From Pyrocephalus nanus (Eukaryota; Chordata; Aves; Passeriformes; Tyrannidae), in NCBI GenBank assembly GCA_038380795.1, contig CM076272.1, positions 2,423,001 through 2,487,000 of the forward strand: a DNA stretch of 64,000 nucleotides, written 5' to 3'. The position numbers and the translations under genes are program-made. Under the pieces are notes generated by a model. It ran no database searches, had not been told where the DNA came from, and worked only from the letters and a program-made list of their open reading frames with translations. Numbering within the stretch: the first letter of the stretch is position 1; every line of letters starts with the position of its first letter. Below, one piece after another: positions 23,139 to 51,849 of this stretch.

Positions 23139-23716
23139 ATGGTGGCCGGCGATGGACCCTCCCAGCGCAGGTCGGTCACGGCGGCCCGGGCCGCCCGCTC
23201 GGGGCTCAGGGCACCGCCTCGCCCTCCGCCTCGCCCTCCGCGCCGCAGCCCCGGCCCGCGGGGGGCCCGCCGGCGCCGTCCTCTCCCCCCCTCCCCCCGG
23301 GGTATTTATTCTGTGCGGGGATGGCCGCGGCCGGGCTCGCTCTGCCCCTGGGCGGGCAGCGCTTTGTGCCTCCCGCTGCACCGAGGGCCGGCTCTGTTAC
23401 CCGCGCCGGGGCCTTGCCCTGCGTGTAGATGGCACACCGAGACAACAGAGGTCAGGGGTGCGGGCTGTGCCCGTGACCGGCGTGACCCGCGATTGCGAGC
23501 GCTGCTAAAATCCACCTTACCACACACCTGCAGCGCGGCGCGTCTCAATCCCTTTGGAACCCTGTCCGTGTCACGTTTATTTACACTCCAGAGGAACGTT
23601 ATTTTTGTCGGAATCAGCGATAAAATCTCGCGTGAGTGCTCCGTGGGAGCTCCCGGTCCGTGGTGTGTGTAACTGTTCCTTTCCTCCCCAGGAAGCCCCT
23701 ACCAGCCCGTCATTGA
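23139..23716 (+). other. Upstream overlapping ORF in the IREB2 leader
   Basis: An ATG at 23,139 lies 13 bases before the IREB2 start in another frame. It has G at -3 and G at +4, a strong initiation context. Across the exon 1/2 junction (23,170 to 23,692) it encodes 18 residues and stops at TGA 23,714-23,716, downstream of the IREB2 ATG, so the two frames overlap. It only matters if transcription starts upstream of 23,139. Confidence 0.5.
23152..23170 (+). CDS. IREB2: IREB2 coding exon 1
   Basis: Encodes MDPPSA plus the first base of Gly7 and ends in phase 1. The donor is GTCGGT, weaker than the others in the gene. Confidence 0.88.
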
Positions 23717-26700
23717 AGCTCTGGAAAAGCACCCCCAGAAGAAGTTCTACAATGTGTCCAAGCTCGGAGGGGCCAAGTATGGTACGTGAAGCTCCGGGGG
23801 GTGACTGGGGTGGGACCCCCCGAGTGCCCTGCGGGGTGGGGGGATGCAGGCACCTTGTGCTATTCTCTCCTGTTAAACCAAGATACCTCCATGAGGTATT
23901 TACTAGAGGCATTGGGGAATTTTTATTTTATTTTTCTATTTGGCAAGGTCTGAATTGTTCTGTGCTCACAGGATTTGTGATGTGTTTGTTAAATAAAGAA
24001 TTCCCAGTGGATGTTTCACTTCAAACTGGTGTTTGACACAGTGATTAATTCACTGTAGGTTGAAGGGCCCAGAGTCTGCTGACACTTTGTGCAACAGCTG
24101 AGGGCTCTTGCAGATTCCTCCTGCTTGTGGTAACAGAGTTAATCTTCCAGATAAGCACAACTGAAGGAAGGAGGAGGTTTCTGCTGGTGGCTTTGCCCAG
24201 GGAGAAGCAGTGCCCTGGTGCTTACAAAACCAGGCAGTTCCACAGCAGTTCTTTGAAAAGCCTCGAGACAGGAGTGGAAATACAAGCACAGGATACCCCT
24301 TCCTGCTCAAATGTGCCAAAAATCTTGGACCAGCCACGGATATTCCTGAAGGTGCTCTCAGGAGTTTGGATGAAGAGGGTCTTTGTCTTCCAGTGCAGAA
24401 GTTGGAAGCCTCATATTAACTAGATAGCAAAATATTAAATAACATTTAGACATGGTGTGAGGGCAGCACTGGTAGCAAATCCACCCTCTGGAATTGCTCT
24501 CTGCATTTGTTGCTGGACCATTTTCAGTTCTACCTGTTTGCCCTCTGCCTTGGGGGCTTCTGGCTGCAATTTGGCATGAAGTGCCTGTTTATGGTAATCA
24601 GACTATTAATGTAAATGTGAATTGATTTATTTGTCAGTTTTCCAGGGAGATTTTCTAGTGTTGAAAAGGGGAAATGGGGACCTTGTATCCCTCCCTGCCT
24701 GGGAGCTGCTTTTTCCTCGTGTCCAAGTGTCCCTTCCTGCCCCCTGGGACTCTCATTGTGCCATCACTGGGTGTTTCTAACTCTGCCCTGCCCAGCTGTG
24801 GGGGTGGTGGGTGCTGCTGACCCCCCACTCAGTCCCTTCTGGGAATTTGGCCTGGAAATCCCGTGAGGGGTGGCATGACAGGTCACTGCATGTGGTTTTG
24901 GTGACATCTTCCTACTCAAACCCACTCAAATCTTACACTGAAAATAGGCACTTGTGTAATTAGAAAACAGTGAATAATATCTAAGAAAAACACAGTGAAA
25001 ACAGAGCAAATTCTGTGTTAATGGTTTGTGAACAAACCTCTGGATTAGGTTAAGACAACCAATTCTAATCTTTTTTTTATTAGAGCTTGAGCTTAACTGT
25101 TTCACCTCCTTCTAACTAACTTTTTTTTGTATTTCTCCCTGTTCTCATGAAGTTGTTTGTCTGCTTGAATGATGCTGAAAATAATGGGATTTGTTTCAGT
25201 TTTTTGTTAGTTTCTATGCTGTCATTAGTGACACACTGTTTTTCCTCTTCCCTCTTTCTTCATTTCATTTCAATTTCCTTATTTTTTTTTCTGCCAGCAA
25301 ACTGCTGCTTGCCAGTAGCTCAATTCAGATCAGCAGCAAACCCACTCAAGTTACATTCAGTGAAATGCCCTTGTCTATATTTTATGAAGTGTGTTTCCTT
25401 TTAAAAGGGCACATGGCAGAGTAGTTTCTGGCCTTCGTATCACTGCTTATTAAAATAATATCCTGCCAGTGGATGCTTTTGGCTGGATATCTCCAGTAAT
25501 GCAGTGGTAAAATTTACAGTTCAGAGTGGGTCTGAATGTTCTCATTGCCATTGCTTTTGGCCTGTTCTGATCAATAATCCCAGCTCTGTGTTCCTGCCAG
25601 CATAACATACCTTCCTCAATGTGACTCTGCACGCAGGGGGGTCAGGCCATTGACATCTCCCTTCTGATAACTCAGCTCCTGCAAAATGCACGTTATGGAA
25701 CTCACTGTGTAAGGAAGATCAACCCCAAAGGCAGCTGGAGGAGCAGGCTCCTGAAGCTCTCATCCCTCCAGTGCCTGGAAAAGTGGGATTGTTCAGAAAT
25801 TGGGGGATTGTGAGCTGAGGAAGCTGCAGGTGTTGATATCCCTGTCCCTGCTCTGCAGACACTCTGCCTTACTCCATCCGAGTGCTGTTCGAGTCCAGCG
25901 TCCGCAACTGCGACGGCTTCCTGGTGAAGGAGACGGATGCCATGAACATCCTGGACTGGAAAACGAAACAGAACCATGTTGAAGTGCCCTTCTGTCCTGC
26001 CAGAGTTGTTCTTCAAGACTTCACGTAAGTGTGGGAGCACCAAACCCCCCCGGGAGCAGCTGCGTGGACTCCCTGAGCTCATGTGCAGCCCTTGGGCTCG
26101 GGAATCAATCACACCTCGCCTCTGATACCCAGGGGTCTGCTGTTCCACTGGATTCCTTCTGATAGTTCCACAGGGTGCAAGGGTAGGGGTTGTTCCACAG
26201 GGTGCCCTGGCAAGGCTGAAGCTGCTGGTGCACGAGGAACACTTGTCAGGATAAGAGCCAGAACACAAATGGAAGTGGTGATGTTTGGCTGTAGGCAGAT
26301 GGCTGCCAGGTCACTGAAATCCATGGAATTCTTGCTTGAGATAATTGAAGATTAAATACTGCTTATTCCACAATGAGTAATCCACTTGAATCATGAATAA
26401 TACATATATTTAAAAAGCAATCTCTTAGGATGTTGACTTTCTTTGTGATTGGACTCTGGCCTAGCTGAAAGGGCAGTCCTTCAGCAATTTGCAGACATTC
26501 AGTTGAAGCTGTCTCACTGACTCTGTTTATGAAGAAGTGAGATAATTAAAAAAAGGAATTATGATAATAATAAATTTGAGGTAACTTCTGCTTAAACCTC
26601 AGTGAGGTTTATGTTCTGTGTTGTATAAACATTCCCCCCTCTCAGCCCTGCACTTCAGGTGTGCCTGTTATCTGTGTCATAGCAACACGGGGGGTTATCA

Positions 26701-29700
26701 TCTGAAATGAGGCTCAGCCAGATCTAGAATTAAATAACAAAAAGGAGTTTGTGTGTTTTGGTGAGTTCGTGTCTCACGTTGTACTATTCTGTTTTTCCAT
26801 CTGGCAGTGGAATTCCAGCCATGGTGGATTTTGCTGCCATGAGGGAAGCTGTGAGAAATGCTGGAGGAGATCCTGTGAAAGTCAACCCTGCCTGCCCCAC
26901 TGATCTCACTGTTGACCATTCTCTGCAGATTGATTTCAGCAAATGGTAATGTCCTTTTTCTCTTACAAACTGTACATTTTTGTTTGACACTGAGGGGTGG
27001 ATTCATTCAGGTCTTGGTGCTGTCCCATCAAATCATTTATCCTGGGTAGATCCTTGCAGTGAGACATGGTGGTGGTATCTGAAAAAAGGCTGGATAAAAA
27101 TGGCTAAATGAACACTCTGGAAGGAGAGGAGGAATGTTTGTGAGGCATTCTGGGTGAAGCTGACTGATAATCCAAATTCTGGGCAGGATTTTGCTGAAAT
27201 AACAGGATCTGGCGTGGTTTCCAGAAAATAATATGTCTCAAGAGGATGAGGCAGAGGGAGTTTGTAATTTTTGCTTTGCTCTGTTTATAGTGTTCAAACA
27301 GATAAATGTGGCTGCAGAGATTTTCAGAGAGAATAAGTGTGCTTGGAGAAGTCTGGACAAGTATGAGGCCTGGAAAACTCCCAGTGTGGTTTTCCTTGCC
27401 TGACAGGCAGTGATGTGATGAACACAGCCTGGGGCTGCCTTTGCTAGAAACATAATACAGGAACAGCTTGGGTTTTATTCAGTGTTTGCTGAGGGAAACA
27501 CTAAAATAACGTGGCTTCCCTTCACCTCCTCCCCTGCCCCTGCATGGTGGAGCCTTCCAAACTCACGCAGAATTGCATGAAATGCTCAGGCTCTCTGGGA
27601 ATTTTAAAAGTTTGTGGGGAAGAGGGCCTGTGGTCAGATGGACAGGGATGTGTGAGTCATTCCTGTCAGCCTTCCAGAGGCTCCCAGGATTTCAATCTGC
27701 TGGGTGGTGGGAGAGGAAGGAGCTGCAGCTGATGGGTGGTGCTGCAGACGTGCCGTGTCAGTGCCGTGCTCTGGAGGGACAGCTGCTTCCCCCGCAATTA
27801 GGCCAGCCTAAAATTATCAGGCAGGCCAAGTGTTGGCAAGAGGTCTGGGTGTGCTGCTTTGTCATGATAAATCCAGGCTCTGGAGCATCACTGGGGAAGC
27901 TTTGGGCTCTCAGCAGCTGCTGGGCTGTGATAAGAAGCCCCTTCCCTGCAGGGTGGTTGGTGCTGCTGTCCCAGAGCTCCTACCTCCTGCAGATGGGCTG
28001 GGGTGGGATTTGCACGAGGTGCCCTCTGAGCCAGCACTCTGCTCTGCCCCCTGATAACTCAGTATCTGCCTGTGTTCCTAAAGCAGGAGAAAGCAGTGGC
28101 TTTAATTGCAGCTGTGTGATTTGGTAATTACTGAGAGATAAATAGTCATTAGTTTCTCACAAGCTTGCTTTGCTCTCCTGCACAGACTGGATGTACAAAT
28201 AGAGGGTATTGAGCTGGGTTGACTTTATTTTTAAAAAAAAACCCCTCCAACTTTTCTGTCCTACTTCTGTCCGACTTGAACAACGTATAAAATTTATCAG
28301 AATCTTGGATAAAAAGCCTAATTAAATAATAAAGCTACATTTCTTTCCTCGAGAAAGCTTTGCCTGTAATCACTCCTCTGTGGATTTAACATGTGCAGAA
28401 TAGTCTTAAAAAAAAAAAGAAACAACTTGATTCTACCGTTTGAATGAGACTGTGTGAACACCTCCCAAGTTTAAAACCCTGAGTTCAGCCTTTAAAATAA
28501 TAAAGATTAGTAAAGATTTCTGGCCCGTTGTGAACAAACGGAAGGAGCTGTGCGGTGTTAATCTTTCAGACAAGCCAGTCCTGTTCATTTACTGTGCCAC
28601 CTTACTTAACGAAGCTTATCCAGTGCTAGTTTACACTGCAAAAATAAAAACAAACAACAAGGTGGGAGCGGGGAAGAGCAAACAACCCACTGACGGAGTT
28701 GTCGCTGTCTTTGTGTTGCAGTGCAATCCAGAACGCCCCCAACCCCGGGGGCGGGGAGGCTCCGAAGCCGCCGGCCCGGCTGTCGCCGCTGCGGGCGCAG
28801 CCCCGGAAGGTTCCGTGCCGGGGCCAGGGCGGCTGCAGGGGCGGGCCCTGCGAGCCCGGCCGGCATCCCCCGCCCTTCTCCGCGCAGATCGAGAACACGC
28901 CCATCCTCTGCCCCTTCCACCTGCAGCCCGTGCCTGAGTATGCACCCTCTTTGTGTGTTCTGTGTTGTGGAGCTCTGCCTGGGATAGCTCATGGAAATGC
29001 CTTTTTTTTTTTTTTTTAAATGTCTGTCCTCTTCAGCTGTGCCATGGGCAGGTTGCAGTAGCCAGAAGAAGGTCACATGGAGCAGATGTGAATTAGTCTG
29101 CTACAAATTTATATATCGGTGCAGATGGCCAGCTATTGGCTCATGGCTGTGACTTTTAAATTAAATTTCGATAATTCCCTTGTTTCTTCACAAGGACAAC
29201 AACGGATAGGAGTGTAATCCTCTGTGTGTTGGAAAGGAAACCCGAGTGAATAAATCAGTGAAGCGTTAATTTATTTCTAAAAGTAATTTGTAGCTCTTGT
29301 GTGATACCTTTTCAGAAGTCTCTGGCTCTTAGAAGTAGCTTACACATCATCCCCCAACCTTTAGAGGATCTCACAGTCTGTGTGTCCCTGAGCTGCAGTT
29401 CAGTAAATGTCCTGTACCAGCCCAGGGAAGGCTCATCTCTGCCCTCCCAGGGTTGCTGTGTTATCACCAGATTGGTGTGTGCCAGTTACTCACAATCACC
29501 CTCCTCTTGGAGCTGCCTCCGTGGTTTGATGGACTGTTCAGATCCCAATCTGCCTGTGCTGGACAGGTGGAGCATTTACCAGCTGATGCAATCTGTACCC
29601 ACAGCAGTGCTGAGCTGAACGCCGTGGTGATTTTGTAGATGTGGGAACATTGCTGCTCAGTGCAGTTCAGCTGCTGCTGCAGGGAGGAAAGGGAAGGATC

Positions 29701-32700
29701 GTGGTGTAAAAAACCACTTGTGAAAATTGAGAACTTCCTGGTGCAACAGCAAATGTGTTCCCTTCCTCGTTCAGCTACTCAAAGCAGAGATTATTCCTCT
29801 TAATTTGTGGATTGCTCTGTTATAACAACCATCAGTATCTTAAACATGACACTTACCAAGAAAAGATAGTTCATTTTAGGGGGCTACTGATGAGTACCTG
29901 TGAAGACAGAATTGTGGCATGGAGGGAAATACAGGAATGGAGGACAGTTACAATTACCCTGATGTTCTGCTGATGGCCAGTTGTGAACGTGGAGTGTGTT
30001 TTTACAGTAACTGGTGAACATCTGGGTTCTTTACTGTGTGGGGTTCTGAGGTGTTCAGCCTGTGAGTCAACACATGGGGCTAAAAAAGCTTCTGTGTGTT
30101 GTAGGATATGCCTGGAACAGATCCCTCAAAGTATTTTTGAGATCAGAAGCTTTAGGTAAAGCATACCTGGAGTGAACCTGTTCTCAGGAGCAGCACACGT
30201 GAGGTCAGCTGCTTCTTACTGCTTACACACAACTTGCTGCAGGGAAGCAATTATCTTTGTTCTAATAAACCACTTCAAACAGTCCTGCAGGCTTAAAGGA
30301 GTCTCTCATCAAACAAACTAAAACTACAACTTGTTCTTCTGTAATTTGAAATGCATTGTGACAGTCCTTGTCAACTTGTTATCTTCTAGGCCCGAGACGG
30401 TATTGAAAAACCAGGAGATGGAATTTGGCAGAAATAGAGAGAGGCTTCAGTTTTTTAAGGTATGGCTGTGTACCTGCAGGCTTTGTGTTTGGGGCTTTTT
30501 GTTTTTTTTAGGAGCTGTTTGTCTACCAGTGTTCAGGTTTAGATGATAAATTTAATTGGAATCGTTTGGAAGTGTTAGACTCTCAAATCTGAATTTAATA
30601 CAGAAAATTGGCTTTTTAACTTGAGAAAGTTTACTCTTATTCAGTTCTTGTCTGTGGGGATTTATGAAGTATTAATCTTTTTAATGTCTTTTCCTGAGCT
30701 CAGTGCTTCAGGTCACAGTGAGTTTTTGGTAAAAGGTTCATTTATCCCCAGCCCTGCTATAAAACTTCTGCTGCTGGGCAGGGACCTGCAACACTGATAT
30801 TTGATCTTCATCCACTGATCTGACATGGTTTAGGAGATCTGAGACTCTGTTCCTGTGTGTAGACCAGGAGGGTTCTCTCTGAAGCAGATGAACTTTTCCA
30901 TTATTAAAGAAGGAAATGGCCAGGCTGGATCTCGTTACAAGTTTCCACATCAGCTCTGCTGAATTTACCACCCTGAGTTTGCAGATGGTCTCACCCAGGA
31001 GTGTCAAACCCAAACTCAGTTATGCTGTAAATACAAATTCTGCAGTAAATACAAGTTTTTAGGTTCTGTTCTCTAAATACCAGTCTTAGGTGGGCTGTAA
31101 GTAAGTTGGGTGAACTGGAAGGTAAAAAGAGATTCTGCTGCCCTGCTTTTGGAAGGTAGGTATGAATTATTGATCCAGCCTTCACAGGAGCTGAGTGAGG
31201 GGTTGTGTTGATAATTAGGAATGTATCCAAGGGGATCACATACCTCTGTTTGACAAAGGAGCCCCCTGGGTAAATAGTAAGGACTCCTTTATTGTGTCTC
31301 AGTTTATGTTGCAAGACTTGAATACACCTTTGAAAAAAAATGCAACTCTCTTTCTTCTCCTTTTTGAAAACATTTCAGTGGAGTTCAAAGGTTTTCAAGA
31401 ACATTTCCATCATTCCACCTGAGACTGGCACGGCTCACCAAGTGAACTTGGAATATTTGTCCAAAGTTGTTTTTGAAGTTAAGGATTTGCTCTACCCCGA
31501 TAGCGTGGTTGGCACAGATTCCCACACGACCATGGTCAATGGCTTGGGTATCTTGGGCTGGGGTAAGTATAACTTCAAATAACTTCATTGCACAGGCACA
31601 CTAAAGCTGGGTGTTTGTATCTCAAGCATAACACTCTGGAGTTATTCTTCTGAATTTTTTGATCCAAAAGTAATCTTGACTAACATTTTTTTCCACTGAG
31701 AAATGGCTCTGTAATTAAAAGAGAAAACAGCCCAAAAGCACCTGATACTCAAATAAATTCAAAAATTTGCATGAAGGTTTCTCTCAGAAAACTGGTTTCA
31801 GATGTCAAAGGTTTTCTGCTCGGCTGTGACGTTTCCCTTGAGCAGTGGTCGTGCCTGCTTTGAATTTTGGGTCTGGATTTAGTGCAGCTCCTGCATTTCT
31901 TGCTGTGTCCGTGTGGGGAATGAAGAGTTGCCTTTCATCTTGCTGCTTCTCCACCAAGTGTTCATTGACACAGCCTTTAGGCTCAGTAGCAGGGGTGTTG
32001 TTAATTGTCAGGACCTGAGCATGCAGAGTGTTTTGCTGATGAGAGCACTGTTGATGTTTCCTGGCAGGCGTTGGGGGCATCGAGACGGAAGCGGTGATGC
32101 TGGGGATGCCCCTCACCCTCACCCTGCCCCAGGTGGTGGGCTGTGAGCTCACAGGCACGGTCAGCCCCTTTGCCACCTCCATAGACATTGTTCTGAGCAT
32201 AACCAAGGTGAGTGTCTGATGCCTTTTCAGTCTAGAGAGAGTTTGTTGCCAGTAGCACCGGTGGTGTTTGAGCCTGAATTAAACACCAGGAGGGTTTTCA
32301 CTGCACCTTTAATCAGGGCACTGCAGAAAGGTGCAAATAATCCCTAACCATTTTTATTTGCTAGTCCTTCGAAGCAGCAGGCTTTTCTTTCTCCTTACAC
32401 TCATGAAAGAGTAATTTATAATAATTTTTTGTTCTTTCAAACGTAGCCTTAGGGTTCCTTTTTCGTTTGAAACGTTCGTGACTCGTGAATTGTTGTGACA
32501 GACGTGGCTGGCACTTGTACCTCTGCGCGTAACAATTGTTGATTTGTGTCCTTCCCAACAGCATCTGAGGCAAGCTGAGGTGGCTGGCAAGTTTGTGGAG
32601 TTTTTTGGGAGTGGTGTTTCCCAGCTGTCTGTAGCAGACCGAACCACAATAGCAAACATGTGTCCTGAATATGGTGCTACTCTGAGTTTTTTCCCTGTTG

Positions 32701-35700
32701 ATAATGTGACATTGAAGCACTTAAAGCATACAGGTAAAAGATGAAATTAAAACAGTGATTCGTTGTAATTGTGCTTTTGATTCATGGTAATACACATTTT
32801 TGGCTTAGAACTCCACAGTGTCAAGTCTAATTAATGTATAATTAGACTCTTGCTTGAGGTTTGTGTCCAGTCTGGTTCATTTGTCAATGGCTGATTTATG
32901 AACATGATGTTATTTTTCAACATCCCCAGCCCTTGGTTTTGAAAGCATCTGTTACCCTTTAAAAGAAAAGTATTAAGGAAATTCTCGGTTACATTTTGAA
33001 ATGTGTGTGGAATGCGAGTCTTCTCAATTTGAAGTGAATCCATTGACCGACCACCTGTAGATTCCCTTCAGAATCCAACTTCAAAATGATTACTAGAAAG
33101 GAGTGAATCCGCAGAACAAATCACATCTCTGATTTTTTTCCCAGTGGAAAAAATCCTTCCCTTTGAAGCTCAGGATTTCAGGCTAAACCAGGAGAATGGC
33201 AATTCCTTATCAAGCTGCTGCAAACAGAGAAAGCCCCAGTGACAGATACCAAAAAAAAAAAAAGCTGCTTCATGAGGGAGCCTTTCTGAAATGAAATCTT
33301 TCAGTTTTAAATGAGTTCAGTATTTTTAACAGCAAACATGTTTGTCTGGCCAGTGCAGAGCAAATCACCAATTTCCAAACAGTAATTCTGCCCATGGTCA
33401 ACTCAGCACGTGGTCTGTGCTAAATCCTGACAGAGAAAAGCCCTGTGGCCTTCAGGGACACATCTGTAAATGCACTTTGAGTCACAACTTCTGGAATAAC
33501 TTAGATTATTCCATGGTGTAAGAAGACAAGTTAAGCTAATTTAGAGGAAAGTATAATCATTTGTAAATGTTTTCCACTGTGTATCATTCCTGGCTAGTTT
33601 CTGGAGGTTGGGGTATGGAAGTGGTGTGCTTGGAAAAAAAAAAGTGCTTTGAATGGTTACACTTAAGAGTCTAAATTTCTGAAAATTATGTGTTTTATTT
33701 ATGTCTGTAATGTGACTTTTGTCATGTTTGAAATCACCTCCCTAAGGTTTGGACGAGGCCAAGCTTGAAGTGATGGAAGCATATCTTAAAGCTGTGAAGT
33801 TATTTAGGAATGAGGAGAGTTCTTCCAGAGAACCTGAGTATTCCCAGGTAAGCTGGAAAGGATTTGGGGGGGAGTGATTTTCCTAAATAACTGCTGAGGA
33901 TTTCACAGGCTGGTCTCCCCCTGTCATTTGTCACTGCTTTCAGCAAAGTCAGTTATTCACTCACAATTTCAAGAAGCAAGAGTTTATTTGCAAAACATAA
34001 GAGGGGGTGGGGAGAAGAAGGGAAGTCCAGTAACATTTTGTCAACTATCAGGTACTGAATTCCAGTCGTTCCCGAGTCTTATGGATGGCAGAAAAGTTAA
34101 GGATGATGTTGAAACACTTGGAATAAGCTGAGTAACCTTTTCCAGTGAATGGTCTTGCTAGGTGGAAGCCCAGAGTTCCAAATATTTGTGATCACTCTGA
34201 TTTTTATCAAGAGTTCCATATCCATGGATAATCCATGGTAATTCCCGTGCTTTCTGTTCCTTGCTTTTTTTTTAGGTAGTGCAAGTCAGTCTAAGCTCTA
34301 TAATTCCATATGTCAGTGGTCCCAAGAGATCCCAGGATAGAGTGGCTGTTAATAACATGAAAAGTGACTTCCAAGCCTGCTTGAATGAAAAGGTTTGTAC
34401 CACTGATGTTCTCTTCCCAAGGTATTTCCTGTAATCCATGTGAATCCCTGCACAACTGCTTGGCCAGGGTCTTCTTCCCCTCCTTGCCAAGTGTCCCAAG
34501 GGGAGGAGTTGGTAAATCATCCTCAAGTGGTTTGGCAGGAACAAGATACTTCCAAGTATCCTTAATGCCATGGTTGAGATTGCTGGGGAGGAAGAACTTG
34601 AATTCACAGTGTGAGCTTGTGAATTTTTTTCACTTTTTCAAGGATTTTTTAAAACAATTACTTGATTTCCACAGCGGAATTTATTATGAGGAAAGAAAAC
34701 TCCTAATATCTTAAAGGAGATTCAGAAAACCTGCCAAGATTTGTAGCTAATCAGTGTTCCAGGTTCTTAATGATTAAGATTAAAATGATTGTTGTTCACA
34801 GCTTACCTTGACTTCACAGAGGGAATGTTTTTAGTTAGGGATGTGTTCAGGTATCTGAGAATGCAGCCAATACAGGAATTGTACCTTCATTTCTGGTGTT
34901 TGTCAGTGAAGTTCAGGACTGGCAGCAGTGTTAGTGAGAATTCATTCTGTGGGGTTGAGGCTGTGACCCAGCGGTCAGTTGTGCTGGAGGGAAATGGGAG
35001 CTGATTGTGGAAGGCAGAGGTTGAGAGGGTCCCCTGAGGATGTTGGAGTGCTGAGATCACTCAGGGGAGGGTGTGAAATGCTGATTGACCTGCTCTGGTT
35101 TAGTTACCAATCTTACAACTCATCTTGGACCTGCTTCTAATCCAGCAGAGCTCCAGCAGTTGTGAAGGGAGGAGGATGAGAGCAGTGCATTGACAGAGGG
35201 GCACGGACTGAGGGCTGCTTGTAAATTCTGTGGGAAGGTCCTGAGGGCACAGCTGAGTTATTTCAAGCTGAGGCTTCCCTTTGTGAGCTGTAAGAGGTGC
35301 TAACAGCTATCTCTGCCCCCCAGTGTGGCGTGAAGGGGTTTCAGATTGCAGCTGAGAAGCAGAACGACACGGTGCCCGTTCAGTATGAAGGAAATGAATA
35401 CCAGCTGTCCCACGGCTGCGTGGTCATCGCTGCAGTCATCAGCTGCACCAACAACTGCAACCCCTCTGTCATGCTGGCTGCAGGTATGTCAGCACCACAC
35501 AACCCCTCACCTTCACTGCTGCAGGGATGTCAGCACCACACAACCCCTCTCCTGCTGCCTGCAGGGATGTCAGCACCACACAACCAACCCCTCTGTCCTG
35601 CTGGCTGCAGGGATGTCAGCACCACACAACCCCTCTGTCCTGCTGGCTGCAGGGATGTCAGCAGCACACAACCAACCCCTCTGTCCTGCTGGCTGCAGGT

Positions 35701-38700
35701 ATGTCAGCAGCACACAACCAACCCCTCTGTCCTGCTGGCTGCAGGTATGTCAGCACCACACAACCAACCCCTCTGTCCTGCTGGCTGCAGGGATGTCAGC
35801 ACCACACAAACCCCTCTCCTGCTGGCTGCAGGGATGTCAGCACCACACAGCCAACCCCTCTGTCCTGCTGGCTGCAGGTATGTCAGCACCACACAAACCC
35901 CTCTCCTGCTGGCTGCAGGGATGTCAGCACCACACAAACCCCTCTCCTGCTGGCTGCAGGGATGTCAGCACCACACAACTCCTCTGTCCTGCTGGCTGCA
36001 GGGATGTCAGCACCACACAGCCAACCCCTCTGTCCTGCTGGCTGCAGGGATGTCAGCACCACACAAACCCCTCACCTTCACTGCTGTGGGTTCTCTGCAG
36101 GTCCTCGACCCAGAGGTTTGAAACTACAAACTTGTAGCCTTAACTTGTGTGTTCTGGGGGTGATGCAGTGAAAGTTATCTTCCCACGATACCATCTCCAC
36201 GTTTGTGCCCTGAAGCAGTATTTAAAGAGAGTAATTAAGAATGTTTACAGCTGGCAGTATTCCAGCAGGGAAGCAGTTGCAGGGCTGTTGTCAGGTGGCA
36301 CAGCTGATGCACAGGGGGGGCTTTGGCTTGGATCCTGTCCTGGAGGATGAGCTGGAACACCACAGAGCAGGACAGAAACTCTGCGTGGCTGAACAGCTGA
36401 TCTGTCACTTTTGAAGGGGTATCTGCTGCACCTTCACAAGCTGCAGATGGTTTTGCTGCAGCAGCTCATCTGTCACACTTTGCTCTCATGTTTTAAGGCC
36501 CTCTGTGGCCAAGGGGAGCTTCCCTTTGGGGCTCTGTGGCCCATCTGGGCACTGAATGGATCAGCACTGTCAGCTGGAACGTGGGAAAGACATTTTCCTG
36601 ACAGAAAAGAAAATGGGAATGGGAACAAAAACCTGCACTATGAGTTAAGAAACTTTATTCAGACCAGTAGCTGCTTTAATAATTTAATAATTTGGAAGTT
36701 GTCTAACCCCCTGTGGGTTTTTATGCTTTATTTAACTAAGGTAGCAGCACACAGGTGTCATGGTAAGGGATATAAAGGGATGTACCAATCACAGTCTGTC
36801 TCTTGGCCTTTCTCCCTTGTTGTTTGGCAGGACTGCTGGCCAAAAAAGCCGTGGAGGCTGGCCTGGTGGTGAAGCCCTACATCAGAACCAGCCTGTCCCC
36901 AGGCAGTGGCATGGTGACACATTACCTCAGCTCCAGCGGGGTGCTGCCCTTCCTCAGCAAGCTCGGGTAAGGCCTGGCTGCCCTTGCTGCTTCAGAGGGG
37001 TCGGACCAGTTGGTAAATAGGATTGCTGTTCATTTGGAGTTGGATAATTCTGAACAGGTTTTCGTTTTACTTGCTGGCTCAAAGTTTGTTTTGCCCCATT
37101 GCATTCCCACTTAACAATTTACTGTGTGTGGCTCTGCCCCAGCTGAGCTCTGTGTTTTCAGCACTGAACTCCTTTTCAGTACTGAAGTGTCTTGCAGGAC
37201 AGGTTGCACTTGATGATGTATTTTAAAAGTAAAAGCTGGCTGTCAATTTGCCAGGACAATCTGTATTAAGTCTTCTCTTGGCATTGCTGCTCTCAAAGGT
37301 TGTTCAGCCTGGTTTTGGTTGCTCCATAGCAGATTATGCTCATCATTCTGCAGCAGTGCCCCCCATCAGTGAGATGTAATGTCTGCTGCTCACCTCCTCC
37401 AGAGTTTTAATTGCCAAAGGGGAAAAAAAAATTCTTATTAATTGCTAATAAAAGAAAAAGCAGTTTTGCTGACAAACTCTTTGTGACCGTGGAATGTGTG
37501 ATTTGTTTGCTTTTCCCCTGTAGGTTTGAGGTGGTTGGTTATGGGTGCTCCACCTGTGTTGGGAACACGGCCCCTCTGCCAGAAGCCATCAGGAATGCAA
37601 TAAAACAGGTAAAAAGCTCTGCCTGGCTTGGTAAATACAGAAATGGGATTCCCACCCAGTTAAGCAATCAAGAAGTACAGCAGTCCATGCAAAACAGACC
37701 CCGTTGTTGGTTTGGGCTTTGCACGATGGTTTTGTGCATTTGCAAGTCAGGGACACCTGACAGTTCATTGCTGTCTATGATAAATTTTATAAATGGTATT
37801 TGTAGCATGCAGGTGGAAATTACAGAATAAATACACTTGATCTCATCTTACAGAGGATGCAAAGTGTAGCTTTTGTGTCAGATGTGAAGAGGAGGGAGGG
37901 TTTTGAGGAGCTGTGGACTCAAGTCACTTCAACCAGCAGTGTCTCAACAGCTGCAGCTTTTTTCCTGTTCTGAAGCAGAATTAAAATACAAGAGATGAAA
38001 GGCAGGAGAGGAGTTGACTGAAGGGACAGGAGAACACATCAGAGGGTCAGAGGGGAAAATGAGAAGAGCAGGGTGGTGGCACAGAGCAAACTGCCTTTCA
38101 GCTGTGGCGTTAGAGGAGATGTTTGAAGTGGAATGCTAAAGCACATCTGACCTGGCTACCCAAACCCAGCAGCACGAGTTGCTGTAACAACATGCCTGGC
38201 TGTCCCCTCAGGGTGACATCATCGCCTGTGGGGTGCTGTCTGGCACCAAGAACTTCGAGGGCCGCCTGTGTGACTGCGTCCGTGCCAACTACCTGGCGTC
38301 CCCCCCGCTGGTGGTGGCCTACGCCATCGCGGGCACCATCAGGATCGACTTCGAGACCGAGCCCCTGGGTGAGTGAGGGAGGGAGGGAGGGAGGGAGGGA
38401 GGATGGGAGTGCTGCCTCCCAGCTTCCCCCTCTGCCTGCAGGGCACTGGCAGAGCTGCCAGCACCAGGGCTGTGTGTGTGAGGAGCAATCACAGCCCTGT
38501 TGGTGTCACTGAGCATCCCTTCAGCTGCTCAGATCCATTGCCTGTCTGGTGCCACCTCTGGGGGCCCGAATGTGCACGTGTTTATATTCCAGTATCCATC
38601 AGAAAGCTCCTGTTCTGTTCTCTAACACTGCTGTTGTGTTTGAAATCCTGCTCAGGCGTTGGCTTTAATGGCAAAAGCATTTACCTACGAGACATTTGGC

Positions 38701-41700
38701 CCACCCGAAAAGAGCTTCAGACGGTGGAGGAGGAGTGTGTGATATCATCCATGTTCAAGGAACTGAAGGAGAAGATGGAGGTAGGAATGGCCTTTTGTTC
38801 CACATAATGCAGAGGTTGCTTTTCAGTGTAATATCTTCCAGTTGAATGTGACTTCCAGGGCTCTAACTGGGATGGGTACTGGCATTAAACAGGGATTCTT
38901 AAGTAGTATCCAGTGAGGTAACTTGTAATATATGATAGGAAATTATTTACTAAATAATAGTAACAGAAAATCACCAGTAAGTCTTTGGTTTCTGAATGTA
39001 AAAATATACTAAACTAATTTCTGTTCGTTTTGATTCATTTCCTTTCTTGCAGAAAGGAAACAAACGATGGAATTTACTGGAAGCACCAGAATCAACTTTA
39101 TTTCCCTGGGATTCAAAATCTACTTATATCAGATGTCCTTCCTTTTTTGATAAACTTGTAAGTACAGTGGATCTGTCCATCAGATGATGTGCCTTGCACT
39201 GAAGTAAAGGAATAGCCATTCCAGCAAATCTGCAGTGTTTAAGTTACAATTTAATTATTTCTCAGGCCTTTAAATACTGTTTGTGTCTGTGGAATGAGTG
39301 GAGCTGGTACATCAGGGTGCCTTCATACACTGCAGATATGTTTTATGTCTATTTAAGAGTCTTGGGAAAAAATATTTCTGACACTTTTTTCCCTTCTATT
39401 CTTTCCCCTGCCCTTCCCTTTCAGGCCAAAGAAGCAGCTGCACCCCAGCCAGTTGAAAATGCCCACGTGTTGCTGTACCTGGGGGACTCTGTCACCACGG
39501 ACCACATCTCCCCTGCTGGCAGCATTGCCAGGAGCAGCGCTGCTGCCAAGTACCTGACCAGCAAAGGGTGAGCTCTGGCACCTTCATCTGGCACAGTGCT
39601 GGGCTCCAGACGTGCCCCTCTGCAGGAAGGGGGCACTGGGTGGGGGAAAGCCCAAAGTCAGCACCTCCTGGGCAGCCTGGCTGAGGGTGACACTGGGAAT
39701 CAGCCCTAAAGAACTGCTGCCCACAGCCCTTGCCACGTGGGTGCCAGAGCAGGACTGATGTCCTGATGTGCAGATCAGTGACTGATTGGTAGCTGAGGTT
39801 GGTCACTGCCACTGGCTCAAGAGATGCACAGATCATCAGATCACTGTAAGAAAATGAACCCCAGTCCTATAACTGCATGTGGTGTGGACTCTTCTTTCTC
39901 ACTCTTCAGTCTGAAGGAGTCGTATTGCAGGAAACAAAAAATTCACAGGCCTTTAATTGGTTGGTTGATTGATGAGTAAAGCTCTCAGTTTGGTACAAGG
40001 CTTGTTATTAATTGTGCTGGTTATGGTAAGAGGATCAGTGAGCTGGTTGTTATGGTAAGAGGATCAGTGAGCTGGTTGTTTCCTAGAACTGTCTGCCCAT
40101 AATTCTCCTGGAAGTACCACGCTGCTCGTAGCTCTTCATAATGAAGTTGTAGAAAATCAGTTTAAAATTGCAGCTTTGCTCCTGAGTGATGTAGCGGTGG
40201 TTTACATGTGCTGCTCATGATTTATAATTCCATCTTTGGAGGACTAGTTCTTTACATCTTCCACCAAAAGATTTGGAAATGCTGCGATAATTATCAAAAA
40301 ATCATAATATCCTGTTCAACTGGATAATGTTTAAAATGACTGATTTTCTCTTCAATTTGCTTTTTTGTTCCAGACTCACCCCTCGTGAATTCAACTCTTA
40401 TGGGGCTCGAAGAGGTAATGATGCTGTGATGACAAGAGGGACCTTTGCAAACATCAAGCTCCTGAATAAGTTCATAGGAAAACCAGCTCCTAAAACAATT
40501 CACTTCCCATCAGGACAGACGGTAAGCAGTGTCTTTGTTGGCACAGCTGCTCTGGAATGGGGGTGCAGCTTTGGAACTCGCTCTCACTGTGTCACTTTGT
40601 CACTCCCCAGCTGGATGTGTTTGAAGCAGCAGAGCTGTACCAGAAGGAAGGCATTCCTGTGATTATTCTGGCAGGAAAGAAGTATGGACTGGGTAGCTCA
40701 AGAGACTGGGCTGCCAAAGGACCTTTTTTACTGGTACTGCTGGTTTGTTTGGGTTTTGGGGGGTGGGTTTGTTTTTTTCTGGAAGCACCTAAAAACCACA
40801 TCATACGCTTTCTTTGTTAGAATCTTCCTGGGAAAGAACCACTAGTCAGGATAAATCTGAATTTCCTAAGTATGCAGCTTACCCTCTTGGGTACCAGACT
40901 CTGAGATAAATTAGACATTTATCTAGAGCTGACCTCTCTTTGGTCTCCAGGGGGTGTTCAGTGTATCTCACTATTGGAGACTGATTCCCACTAATATTCA
41001 GAATAATAATGGTCAGCCACTAATTCATGTCCTGAAGGTCACAGTCTGTGACAGCCCCAGGTCACGCTCCACGGGCCAGCTCGGGCTTGTTTGCTTCCAT
41101 CTGCTGTAAATTTAAAAGATGCCCCAGGGCACTTGGAGGACTCTGGTTCAAGCTGTGTCTTCCCTCTCAGCTGGAGTGGCAGGACATGCTGTTTGTTTGA
41201 GGTCTCAGTGGCTGTTCCTGTGTGTTCCCAGGGGGTCAGAGCTGTGCTGGCCGAGAGCTTCGAGAAGGTTCACCGCAGTCAGCTGATTGGGATCGGCATC
41301 GCTCCGCTGCAGTTCCACCCTGGGGAAAACCCCAGCACTCTGGGCCTCACGGGCAAAGAGCAGTTTTCCATATTGTTCCCTCCGGAGCTGTCGCCCAGGA
41401 TGGCTTTGGATGTTAAGGTATCTTGGCAATATTTGTCATTGCTCTGTTGGGTGTGCTGATGATTGAAAGCAGAGAAAGAAAAGTTAGTCCTGATGACAGG
41501 AGGCAAAGCAGGAAAAAAAACAATTCATTCTCCTGGAAGGTAAGCTCCTGGTGCTGCCTGCAGGTGGGCGTGGCTGTTGGAGTGTCCCAAAGCACAAACA
41601 CACATGTTATTTCTACACAGCTTTGTATGCAACCTGAAGTACCTGATTGTTCCTTTGGGTGTTGTTTTGCTTCTCCTGGGCGCTGTATTAGGGTAGAATT

Positions 41701-42119
41701 GAGTTGTTGCTTGTTCAGGGGCTTTTAAAGGCAAAGGTGTGATGGTTTGAGAGAGGCTTTGGCTCTCCCAGAACAGTTGGTGCCACCTTAGGCCCATGGC
41801 AACCTGGTTACAACAGGCACGTCACCTGCTGCCAGCTCCATTTACACCAGGCACTAAAACATGCCTCCCATCTGCTCCCAGAGGGCTGAATTCCCTTGTG
41901 TGCCACAGGACGTGGGGTTAGAATGTTAACTGATAATGAGCAAGGGGAAGTGAAAGCAAAACTTAATTAGCTTCTCTTTTTTTTTTTTGTTTTGCTTTTG
42001 TTTTGAAGACGAGCACTGGGAAAGTCTTCAGCGTGATTGCCTTGTTTGAGAACAACACGGAGGTCACTTTATACAAGTATGGTGGAAGTCTGAACTTCGT
42101 GGCTCGGAGGTTCTTATAG
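23152..42119 (+). CDS. IREB2: Iron-responsive element-binding protein 2 (IRP2), 22 coding exons
   Basis: IRP2 is a cytosolic RNA-binding protein of the aconitase superfamily. In iron-poor cells it binds iron-responsive elements in ferritin, transferrin receptor and other mRNAs; in iron-replete cells it is ubiquitinated through FBXL5 and degraded. The exons (23152-23170, 23692-23781, 25859-26024, 26808-26945, 28722-28937, 30390-30459, 31379-31562, 32068-32207, 32562-32733, 33747-33847, 34276-34392, 35324-35483, 36831-36966, 37524-37608, 38212-38368, 38656-38780, 39053-39157, 39425-39567, 40374-40521, 40611-40733, 41232-41417, 42009-42119) join in frame into 963 codons, equal to human IRP2. All junctions are GT-AG. 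The start was chosen because ATG 23,152 gives MDPPSAG, like human MDAPKAG, in the frame that splices correctly; ATG 23,139 does not. Key residues: the IRP2-only Cys segment (170, 176, 181), C512/C516, C578/C581 and S854/R855. Introns hold nothing recognisable apart from the repeats listed separately. Confidence 0.97.
23692..23781 (+). CDS. IREB2: IREB2 coding exon 2
   Basis: Follows TTTCCTCCCCAG. Encodes [16 protein letters not shown] onward to [13 protein letters not shown], matching the IRP N-terminus (human KKFFDVSKLGTKYD). Ends in phase 1 at GTACGT. Confidence 0.95.
25859..26024 (+). CDS. IREB2: IREB2 coding exon 3
   Basis: Encodes residues 37-92, [20 protein letters not shown] through ARVVLQDFT, in aconitase domain 1. 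Donor GTAAGT. Confidence 0.97.
26808..26945 (+). CDS. IREB2: IREB2 coding exon 4
   Basis: Encodes [15 protein letters not shown] through [17 protein letters not shown], one of the best-conserved blocks of the aconitase fold. Ends with the first two bases of a Cys codon. Confidence 0.97.
28722..28937 (+). CDS. IREB2: IREB2 coding exon 5 (IRP2-specific cysteine-rich insertion)
   Basis: Encodes the insertion of about 73 residues that separates IRP2 from IRP1. It runs from [12 protein letters not shown] through [16 protein letters not shown] to [17 protein letters not shown]. The three clustered cysteines fall at residues 170, 176 and 181, a C-x5-C-x4-C spacing; as I recall, human IRP2 has C-x5-C-x3-C. 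The exon is very GC-rich against AT-rich introns and is enriched in Pro, Gly and Arg. The segment was historically proposed to sense iron or haem and to help trigger degradation. Confidence 0.95.
   Translation, partial: CNPERPQPRGRGGSEAAGPAVAAAGAAPEGSVPGPGRLQGRALRARPASPALLRADREHAHPLPLPPAARA
30390..30459 (+). CDS. IREB2: IREB2 coding exon 6
   Basis: Encodes residues 210-233, [20 protein letters not shown] then FFK. Ends in phase 0 at GTATGG. Confidence 0.95.
31379..31562 (+). CDS. IREB2: IREB2 coding exon 7
   Basis: Starts [20 protein letters not shown] and includes [20 protein letters not shown], the aconitase signature region with the active-site Asp-Ser-His set. Donor GTAAGT, phase 1. Confidence 0.97.
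32068..32207 (+). CDS. IREB2: IREB2 coding exon 8
   Basis: Encodes [20 protein letters not shown] through [12 protein letters not shown] and ITK, residues 295-341. Ends in phase 0 at GTGAGT. Confidence 0.97.
32562..32733 (+). CDS. IREB2: IREB2 coding exon 9
   Basis: Encodes [39 protein letters not shown] and [10 protein letters not shown], residues 342-398. Ends in phase 1. Confidence 0.97.
33747..33847 (+). CDS. IREB2: IREB2 coding exon 10
   Basis: Encodes [20 protein letters not shown] and [13 protein letters not shown], part of the charged inter-domain region, residues 399-432. Confidence 0.95.
34276..34392 (+). CDS. IREB2: IREB2 coding exon 11
   Basis: Encodes [29 protein letters not shown] and [10 protein letters not shown], residues 433-471. 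Follows a T9-AG acceptor; donor GTTTGT. Confidence 0.95.
35324..35483 (+). CDS. IREB2: IREB2 coding exon 12 (redox cysteines C512/C516)
   Basis: Encodes [15 protein letters not shown] through [17 protein letters not shown] and NPSVMLAA. The SCTNNC cysteines fall at codons 512 and 516, the positions known in human IRP2 to form a redox-sensitive disulphide pair; C512 corresponds to the first Fe-S ligand of IRP1. The authentic donor is GTATGT at 35,484. The last 25 or so exon bases and this donor are the seed of the array that follows. Confidence 0.97.
35459..36090 (+). repeat. Minisatellite seeded by the IREB2 exon 12/intron 12 boundary
   Basis: The end of exon 12 (CAACCCCTCTGTCATGCTGG then CTGCAG) and the start of intron 12 (GTATGTCAGCACCACACAAC) are followed by about 13 further copies of the same exon-end-plus-donor block, at a spacing of roughly 40-48 bp. 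The copies have CTG where the exon has ATG and an optional CCAAC spacer. Most copies read CAG-GGATGT, so the donor GT is lost. Copies at 35,699, 35,745 and 35,878 keep GTATGT. No stop occurs in the exon 12 frame until about 36,121. Confidence 0.93.
36831..36966 (+). CDS. IREB2: IREB2 coding exon 13
   Basis: Encodes [40 protein letters not shown] and LSKL. Completes the Gly codon split by intron 12 and ends in phase 2. Confidence 0.97.
37524..37608 (+). CDS. IREB2: IREB2 coding exon 14 (C578/C581)
   Basis: Encodes [28 protein letters not shown]. The C-x2-C pair at residues 578 and 581 corresponds to the remaining two Fe-S ligands of IRP1/aconitase. Confidence 0.97.
38212..38368 (+). CDS. IREB2: IREB2 coding exon 15
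   Basis: Encodes [40 protein letters not shown] and IDFETEPL. The exon is GC-rich. Its donor GTGAGT runs straight into a GGGA repeat. Confidence 0.97.
38373..38407 (+). repeat. (GGGA)n tract at the exon 15 donor
   Basis: Seven consecutive GGGA units, with a further GGATGGGA, begin within ten bases of the exon 15 splice donor. Four or more G3 runs at 1-nt spacing fit the G-quadruplex pattern in the pre-mRNA sense strand. Confidence 0.85.
38656..38780 (+). CDS. IREB2: IREB2 coding exon 16
   Basis: Encodes [42 protein letters not shown], residues 651-692. Ends in phase 0. Confidence 0.96.
39053..39157 (+). CDS. IREB2: IREB2 coding exon 17
   Basis: Encodes [35 protein letters not shown], residues 693-727. 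Ends in phase 0 at GTAAGT. Confidence 0.97.
39425..39567 (+). CDS. IREB2: IREB2 coding exon 18
   Basis: Encodes [40 protein letters not shown] and AKYLTSK. Start of the aconitase C-terminal (swivel) domain, with the [12 protein letters not shown] signature. Confidence 0.97.
40021..40078 (+). repeat. 29-bp perfect tandem duplication in IREB2 intron 18
   Basis: TTATGGTAAGAGGATCAGTG followed by AGCTGGTTG occurs twice back to back (40,021 and 40,050) without a mismatch, which suggests a recent duplication. Each copy holds a GTAAGA. Confidence 0.85.
40374..40521 (+). CDS. IREB2: IREB2 coding exon 19
   Basis: Encodes [40 protein letters not shown] and TIHFPSGQT, residues 775-824. The GARRGND segment is a conserved RNA/substrate-contact region in the family. 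Confidence 0.97.
40611..40733 (+). CDS. IREB2: IREB2 coding exon 20 (active-site Ser/Arg region)
   Basis: Encodes [20 protein letters not shown] then [20 protein letters not shown]. Ser854-Arg855 corresponds to the catalytic Ser and substrate Arg of aconitase. The motif reads GLGSSRDW, with Leu where I recall Ser in human IRP2 and Ala in IRP1. Confidence 0.97.
41232..41417 (+). CDS. IREB2: IREB2 coding exon 21
   Basis: Encodes [40 protein letters not shown] through [11 protein letters not shown], residues 866-927. Ends in phase 0. Confidence 0.97.
42009..42119 (+). CDS. IREB2: IREB2 last coding exon 22
   Basis: Encodes [36 protein letters not shown] and TAG. Follows a T-rich tract ending TTTTGAAG, an AAG rather than CAG acceptor. 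Confidence 0.96.
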   Translation, partial: TSTGKVFSVIALFENNTEVTLYKYGGSLNFVARRFL

Positions 42120-45930: not shown

Positions 45931-46032
45931 CTCGCCTTCCTTTCCCTCCCCTGCCCGGTGCTGTCGGACAATCGCCGTGCCCGGGGGGGCTCTCGGGGCG
46001 CTCCCGGCCGGGGCGGCTCCAGCGCAGGGCCC

Positions 46033-46262
46033 GGGCAGGGCCGGGCTCGGGGAGGGTGGCTGGGCTGGGGAGCCCCCCGGGCAGGGCCGGGCTCGGGGAG
46101 GGTGGCTGGGCTGGGGAGCCCCCCGGGCAGGGCCGGGCTCGGGGAGGGTGGCTGGGCTGGGGAGCCCCCCGGGCAGGGCCGGGCTCGGGGAGGGTGGCTG
46201 GGCTGGGGAGCCCCCCGGGCAGGGCCGGGCTCGGGGAGGGTGGCTGGGCTGGGGAGCCCCCC
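46033..46262 (+). repeat. 46-bp minisatellite, five perfect copies (G-rich on +)
   Basis: The units start at 46,033, 46,079, 46,125, 46,171 and 46,217. The unit begins GGGCAGGGCCGGGCTCGGGG and ends GGGGAGCCCCCC. I see no differences between copies, which implies recent expansion or homogenisation. Confidence 0.93.
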
Positions 46263-46509
46263 GTGCCGGCCCTGCCCGCAGCCCCTCGGTCTCCCCGTGC
46301 CGGCCCTGCCCGCAGCCCCTCGGCCCCCCCGGGCCGGCCCTGCCCGCAGCCCCTCGGCCCCCCCGGGCCGGCCCTGCCCGCAGCCCCTCGGCCCCCCCGG
46401 GCCGGCCCTGCCCGCAGCCCCTCGGCCCCCCCGGGCCGGCCCTGCCCGCAGCTCCTCGGCCCCCCCGGGCCGGCCCTGCCCGCAGCCCCTCGGCCCCCCC
46501 GGGCCGGCC
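46263..46509 (+). repeat. 34-bp minisatellite, seven copies plus a stub (C-rich on +)
   Basis: The units start at 46,265, 46,299, 46,333, 46,367, 46,401, 46,435 and 46,469, with a stub at 46,503. The unit begins GCCGGCCCTGCCCGCAGCCC and ends in a C-run plus GG. It contains CCGGCCCTGCCC, the reverse complement of the GGGCAGGGCCGG core of the adjacent 46-bp array. Confidence 0.93.
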
Positions 46510-51330: not shown

Positions 51331-51750
51331 CCTCAGGGTGCAGCTGTGGCCATCACTGACCCTCAGGCCGGCGGTGTGGCCGTTCCTGGCCCTCAGGCCA
51401 GGGGTGTGACCATCACTGACCCTCAGGCCAGGGGTGTGACCATCACTGACCCTCAGGCCAGGGGTGTGGCCATCGCTGACCCTCAGGCCAGGGGTGTGAC
51501 CATCACTGACCCTCAGGCCAGGGGTGTGACCATCACTGACCCTCAGGCCAGGGGTGTGACCATCACGGACCCTCAGGCCAGGGGTGTGACCATCACGGAC
51601 CCTCAGGCCGGGGGTGTGGCCGTTCCTGACCCTCAGGCCGGGGGTGTGACCATCACTGACTCTCAGGCCGGGGGTGTGGCCATCGCTGACCCTCAGGCCG
51701 GGGGTGTGACCATCACTGACCCTCAGGCCGGGGGTGTGGCCATCACTGAC
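51331..51750 (+). repeat. 30-bp minisatellite between HYKK and PSMA4, 14 units
   Basis: Fourteen head-to-tail units of exactly 30 bp, CCTCAGGCCAGGGGTGTGAC plus CATCACTGAC, with variants (CCGG for CCAG, TGGC for TGAC, GTTCC for ATCAC). Because 30 is a multiple of three and the unit lacks a stop in one frame, it creates a long spurious open frame. It starts about 120 bp beyond the HYKK poly(A) signals and ends at the PSMA4 CpG island. Confidence 0.93.
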
Positions 51751-51849
51751 CCTCAGTTCCCGCCCCGCCCCGCTGGCCCCGCCCCGTGCGTGGCAGAGAA
51801 GGGCAGAGGCCCCGCCCCCCGGCGCGCGCAGGGCGCAGGCGCGGCCGCC

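What the first reader, a model, noticed from the sequence alone, without database searches (positions are those of the whole stretch)
35459..36090. A minisatellite seeded by an exon/intron boundary of IREB2
The repeat unit is the last ~25 coding bases of exon 12 plus the first ~20 bases of intron 12. About 13 copies follow the genuine boundary, so the gene carries a chain of exon-end/splice-donor decoys. Coding sequence seeding a tandem array across a 5' splice site is unusual, and the single consistent change (ATG to CTG in the exon part) shows that one early copy was amplified.
Basis: seen in the sequence. Interest (0 to 1): 0.75.

Follow-up and report, generated by a model that had tools for sequence, protein, structure and literature searches.

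The report
Minisatellite grown from an exon end
In a bird's iron-regulator gene IREB2, the end of one exon together with the start of the next intron has been copied 13 more times inside that intron; the array is real but belongs to a known kind of repeat, and only 3 of the 13 copies still carry an intact splice-donor signal.

Summary
IREB2 exons 3-22 form one intact 926-residue frame; exon 12 is 35324-35483. Its last 25 nt plus 18 intron nt (35459-35501) are followed by 13 imperfect copies ending at 36065. All genome hits to the unit lie in this array. Two corrections. The copies are mostly not donor decoys: 10 of 13 read GG where the donor needs GT; 3 of 13 keep CAG|GTATGT, identical to the genuine donor. 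ATG-to-CTG is in 12 of 12 informative copies but is not the only shared change, and variant combinations imply exchange between copies or recurrent change. A 21-bp stretch shared only by copy 1 and the distal flank marks where the original intron resumes. Most likely: replication slippage or unequal exchange at an exon end, tolerated because the proximal donor still wins; occasional decoy use would give one +87-residue in-frame isoform or frameshifts, none seen in 120 listed orthologous proteins. Human ABCA7 and CBS have minisatellites at exon-intron boundaries, so this is a new member of a known kind.

The parts
23688..42119 (+). IREB2 gene as mapped: exon 2 (23688-23780, tblastn match bounds) to the stop codon in exon 22; exon 1 not mapped
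   Evidence: Exons 3-22 and junctions; exon 2 by tblastn with a bird orthologue; human IREB2 matches
35324..35483 (+). IREB2 exon 12 (160 nt), ending CAG|GTATGT
35459..35501 (+). Unit 0: the seed, last 25 nt of exon 12 plus first 18 nt of intron 12, with the genuine donor at 35484-35485
35502..35542 (+). Copy 1, hybrid: its first part is the distal-flank sequence, joined to CAGGGATGTCAGC; donor GT lost
35543..36065 (+). Copies 2-13 (40-46 nt each), all with CTG in place of ATG
35699..35700 (+). Intact decoy donor GT of copy 5; use would extend exon 12 by 215 nt (frameshift)
35745..35746 (+). Intact decoy donor GT of copy 6; use would extend exon 12 by 261 nt (in frame, 87 residues)
35878..35879 (+). 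Intact decoy donor GT of copy 9; use would extend exon 12 by 394 nt (frameshift)
36066..36086 (+). Distal flank: 21-bp stretch also found at 35501-35521 and nowhere else in the window; marks where the original intron resumes
35484..36830 (+). Intron 12 (1,347 nt); the array makes up 582 nt of it

Best explanation
A locus-specific minisatellite that arose by local duplication (replication slippage or unequal exchange) of a ~43-nt segment straddling the exon 12/intron 12 boundary of IREB2 in a bird lineage, then grew and was partly mixed by exchange between units. Shown: the copies, their order, their variants, the loss of GT in 10 of 13, the intact gene, and no second locus found. Inferred: that duplication ran from exon to intron; that the 8-bp direct repeat AACCCCTC and the GCTG shared by exon end and distal flank served as slippage points; that the genuine donor, next to exon 12, is normally chosen so that the array is removed with intron 12; and that the 3 intact decoys are at most minor donors giving an 87-residue in-frame insertion (copy 6) or frameshifts (copies 5 and 9). 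Most likely a tolerated by-product with little or no function.
For: Unit content and order; similarity far above resampled sequence; exon end conserved in human IRP2/IRP1 with ATG, CTG only in the copies; a 21-bp stretch shared only by copy 1 and the distal flank; four variant combinations among units; genuine donor among the best-scoring of the gene's 19 (9.72, exceeded by one at 9.98); intact 926-residue frame; all genome hits within the array (9 of 9 exact, 6 of 6); 119 of 120 listed orthologous proteins join exon 12 directly to exon 13 and none contains the array-word peptides tried; no protein at E<=0.1 for the 87-residue insert.
Against: No other bird's intron 12 was available, so age and direction are not dated. 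The 8-bp direct repeat is not significant: 691 of 5000 resamplings share at least 8 bp, and 2 of 18 other boundaries of this gene have repeats of 8 or 9 bp. The pre-array sequence is read from today's flanks and could itself be shaped by the array. Preference for the proximal donor is untested. One assembly only.
Confidence: 0.85

Rival explanations
1. The array is functional: decoy donors (copies 5, 6, 9) are used in a regulated way, giving an IRP2 isoform with 87 extra residues next to the conserved CTNNCNPSVML segment, or frameshifted transcripts that lower IRP2.
For: The three donors equal the genuine donor letter for letter; only 1 other of 1,044 non-junction GTs in the mapped gene scores higher; copy-6 use keeps the frame over exons 3-22; no stop in any forward frame of 35459-36090; ABCA7 shows a donor-bearing VNTR with one-unit retention (PMC5954066, passages).
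Against: No stop in three frames follows trivially from a stop-free unit; 10 of 13 copies lack GT; none of 120 listed orthologues has such an insert and an insert-only search found nothing, though these would miss an unannotated species-specific isoform; the insertion sits in a highly conserved segment.
Confidence: 0.06
2. The copies act mainly as acceptor-like or recursive (zero-length-exon) splice sites, since each keeps a pyrimidine-rich stretch ending in CAG, and 3 also keep GT directly after it.
For: CAG kept in 13 of 13 copies; [quoted passage not shown] PMC4974935 abstract).
Against: Acceptor scores are weak: 2.7-3.3 for 11 of 13 copies (7.5 for copy 1, 5.1 for copy 2) against a median of 8.5 for the gene's 20 genuine acceptors; 187-228 of 1,163 other AGs in the gene score as high as those 11. 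Intron 12 is only 1,347 nt.
Confidence: 0.03
3. Loss of GT was selected, purging competing donors as the array grew.
For: 10 of 13 copies carry T-to-G at donor position +2 while the rest of the donor stays intact.
Against: About eight sites vary within the unit, so one falling on GT is not surprising (my rough estimate, not a run test); spread of one variant by amplification or exchange explains its frequency; three perfect donors persist.
Confidence: 0.04
4. Assembly artefact.
For: Tandem arrays can be mis-assembled; only one assembly is held.
Against: The array is about 600 bp in a 21.3-Mb contig of a 153-contig assembly; 10 of the 13 copies are distinct, unlike a simple stutter.
Confidence: 0.02

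Closest known systems
Human ABCA7 intron 18 VNTR (PMC5954066; passages seen)
   Same: Minisatellite directly at an exon end whose unit includes the exon's splice donor (first two bases of the 25-bp unit); 23.7 copies in the human reference; a cryptic donor one unit downstream is used.
   Different: The ABCA7 unit starts at the donor GT, here 25 exonic nt are included; ABCA7 is known to be polymorphic and affects splicing, neither of which could be tested here; here most copies have lost GT.
Human CBS 31-bp VNTR at the exon 13/intron 13 boundary (PMC2630376 and PMC5188458; passages)
   Same: Written c.1444_1467+7(16_21): the unit spans an exon end (24 nt) and the first 7 intron nt, 16-21 copies; closest structural match.
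   Different: Different gene and lineage, unrelated unit; more repeats go with lower CBS activity in the review passage, whereas effect here is unknown.
Internal tandem repeats at exon-intron boundaries of human duplicated genes (PMC2812944; passages)
   Same: Minisatellites of about 30-bp units at exon-intron boundaries that can create alternative splicing.
   Different: Those are mostly in segmental duplications and partly retained in exons; here a single-copy gene and an intronic array.
Intron gain by tandem duplication of AGGT-containing sequence (PMC2891723 passages; PMC4974935 abstract)
   Same: Duplicated AG|GT-bearing segment supplies donor and acceptor signals.
   Different: No new intron is shown here; duplication extended an existing intron.

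Membership tests
Minisatellite | Head-to-tail units of about 10-100 bp, several copies | tested here: met
   14 units of 40-46 nt
Exon-boundary-spanning minisatellite (CBS/ABCA7 kind) | Unit includes a genuine exon-intron boundary or its donor, array continues into the intron | tested here: met
   25 exonic + 18 intronic nt, exon mapped by homology and open frame
Exon-boundary-spanning minisatellite (CBS/ABCA7 kind) | Copy number varies between individuals (VNTR) | not testable with these tools
   Only one assembly held
Exon-boundary-spanning minisatellite (CBS/ABCA7 kind) | Alternative splicing at repeat-borne donors | not testable with these tools
   No RNA data; 3 of 13 copies have an intact donor motif; protein searches show no such isoform
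Intron gain by tandem duplication | A new intron delimited by the duplicated AG|GT copies | tested here: inconclusive
   Motifs present, acceptor scores weak; no RNA evidence
Recursive (zero-length exon) splice site | Strong acceptor directly followed by a donor, usually in very long introns | tested here: not met
   Copies with GT have acceptor score 2.7 against a genuine median of 8.5; intron 12 is 1,347 nt; the long-intron criterion is recalled

The most novel reading that the evidence does not exclude
Copy 6's donor is used in some tissue of this bird, so that a minisatellite born from an exon end has given IRP2 a repeat-coded 87-residue in-frame segment beside its conserved CTNNCNPSVML loop, with length able to change by whole units between individuals.
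Probability: 0.04. Interest if true: 0.65.

Novelty: new member of a known kind. Interest (0 to 1): 0.33.

Why it matters
It is a clear, recent-looking avian example of how slippage at an exon end plants duplicate splice signals in an intron, the step that boundary-minisatellite disease loci in humans and tandem-duplication models of intron gain both need. The mix of intact (3 of 13) and broken (10 of 13) donors in one array offers a natural test of how the splicing machinery chooses among identical donors at increasing distance. If the decoys are silent it is an ordinary neutral repeat.

Tried and rejected
Myotis brandtii IREB2 (P0002, 52% over 100% of the query region) looked at first like an insert at the same junction; its sequence shows a second exon 12, not array peptides, and another model of that species lacks it (P0108). 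A second NPSV word in Cinclus mexicanus P0041 is unrelated N-terminal sequence. The idea that an 8-bp direct repeat explains the origin was tested and is not significant. Search for a wild DNA relative in viral contigs gave 6 pattern matches, none a relative. An attempt to count other donor-bearing arrays genome-wide did not complete; a local survey stood in: 11 minisatellites (period at least 15, at least 3 copies, at least 100 bp) in 284 kb, of which this one alone has donor scores of 8 or more (that scoring model includes the exon 12 donor itself). In the window, 1 of 20 hand-merged tandem arrays overlaps a mapped exon (about 1-23 kb and 57-64 kb had no gene mapping). Literature: nine paper searches; listings were capped, and I saw no report of this IREB2 array in them, which is not proof of absence. 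Papers not held: Zhuo 2007 and Lievers 2001.

Full report
Identity. The window is 64 kb of a 21.3-Mb contig in a 1.07-Gb, 153-contig genome. IREB2 lies on the plus strand: exons 3-22 were placed by matches to human IREB2 (PDB 6vcd) and joined at GT-AG junctions into one open frame of 926 residues; exon 2 was matched by tblastn. Of the proteins fetched, the best match by bit score is annotated Corvus moneduloides (93.4% over 930 positions), so the source is a bird; its order was not established. HYKK-like and PSMA4-like exons follow downstream (names recalled from gene order, the Pfam families being APH and Proteasome).

Observation. Exon 12 ends ...CTGGCTGCAG at 35483 and the intron begins GTATGTCAGC. 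The 43-nt segment 35459-35501 is followed by 13 copies of 40-46 nt to 36065. The core occurs 14 times in the window, all there. In the whole genome an exact 31-base pattern has 9 of 9 matches in the array, and a 92-base DNA query has 6 of 6; the tool warns that such counts are lower bounds and that absence is not proof. Similarity to the rest of the intron is far above resampled sequence (81 against at most 28 in 300).

Anatomy. All 12 informative copies (2-13) have CTG where the exon has ATG; none of the 13 copies has ATG there. Ten of 13 have GG and 3 of 13 (5, 6, 9) GT at the donor. Six of 13 carry an ACCA/GCCA insertion, 4 of 13 a TG deletion; 10 of 13 are distinct sequences. Donor base and insertion occur in all four combinations among the 14 units (G without 7, G with 3, T with 3, T without 1), so a single unbranched amplification is not enough. 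Copy 1 begins with a 21-bp stretch that recurs once only, directly after the last copy (35501 and 36066). I read this as the original intron sequence, so that the pre-array intron ran from GTATGTCAGCACCACACA into that stretch, and copy 1 as a junction between flank and unit. This is inference from present flanks.

Direction. The exon end codes for a segment conserved in human IRP2 and IRP1, and the 120 listed homologues of this region come from many vertebrates. The exon therefore predates the array.

Splicing. With a scoring matrix from the gene's other 18 donors, the genuine exon 12 donor scores 9.72; the donors of copies 5, 6 and 9 are the same nine letters and score the same, and of 1,044 other GTs only one scores higher. 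The other ten copies have no GT at that place; a weaker GT further on in each copy (…ATGTCAGC, score 2.1) lies just above the lowest genuine donor (1.7) and such sites are common in the gene (about 22 per kb). Acceptor-like scores of the copies are weak apart from copies 1 and 2. A stronger AG (11.85) lies just beyond the array at about 36100. Using the donor of copy 6 would add 261 nt in frame (87 residues); copy 5 (215 nt) and copy 9 (394 nt) shift the frame and stop early at residues 573 and 666 of the mapped protein. Retention of intron 12 reads through the array in the exon frame and stops at 36119. No stop occurs in any forward frame of 35459-36090, which follows from a stop-free unit and is not evidence of coding.

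Protein evidence. A search with the region around the junction gave 6,657 proteins, of which the best 120 were listed. In 119 of 120 exon 12 joins exon 13 directly: 114 by one pattern, and 5 snake proteins with a variant spelling inspected by eye; the exception, P0002, has exon 12 twice. Five short array words were found in none of the fetched proteins. An insert-only search had 214 candidates and none at E up to 0.1. This cannot exclude a rare isoform of this one bird.

Rarity. In 284 kb of the same contig there are 11 minisatellites by the stated criteria, and this is the only one with donor scores of 8 or more. The genome-wide count failed.

Comparison. The ABCA7 VNTR begins with the exon 18 donor and its second unit's donor is used (PMC5954066, passages). 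The CBS VNTR is written c.1444_1467+7, that is 24 exonic plus 7 intronic nt (PMC2630376, passages), and more repeats go with lower activity (PMC5188458, passage). De Grassi and Ciccarelli (author names recalled) describe repeats at exon-intron boundaries (PMC2812944, passages). So the kind is known; the gene, lineage and donor decay are new details.

Verdict. A true, locally rare, boundary-seeded minisatellite; the decoy chain is reduced to three intact donors; probably neutral.

Noticed in passing
P0002 (Myotis brandtii IREB2 model): Annotated protein carries exon 12 twice in tandem, separated by a short linker; another model of the same species (P0108) has it once. Real duplication or annotation error not resolved.
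   Followed up: partly
window 40020-40080: Perfect 29-bp repeat, 2.1 copies, in IREB2 intron 18 whose unit carries a donor-like ATG|GTAAGAG; two of the best-scoring non-junction GTs of the gene.
   Followed up: no
window 38371-38409: GAGG-type simple repeat beginning 3 nt after the end of exon 15, right behind its donor.
   Followed up: no
window 46030-46509: Two adjoining GC-rich minisatellites (46 bp x5.1 and 34 bp x7.4) upstream of the first mapped HYKK-like exon.
   Followed up: no
window 51345-51756: 30-bp minisatellite, 13.7 copies, between the HYKK-like and PSMA4-like exons.
   Followed up: no
window 36101: Strong acceptor-like AG (score 11.85) directly beyond the array in intron 12.
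   Followed up: no
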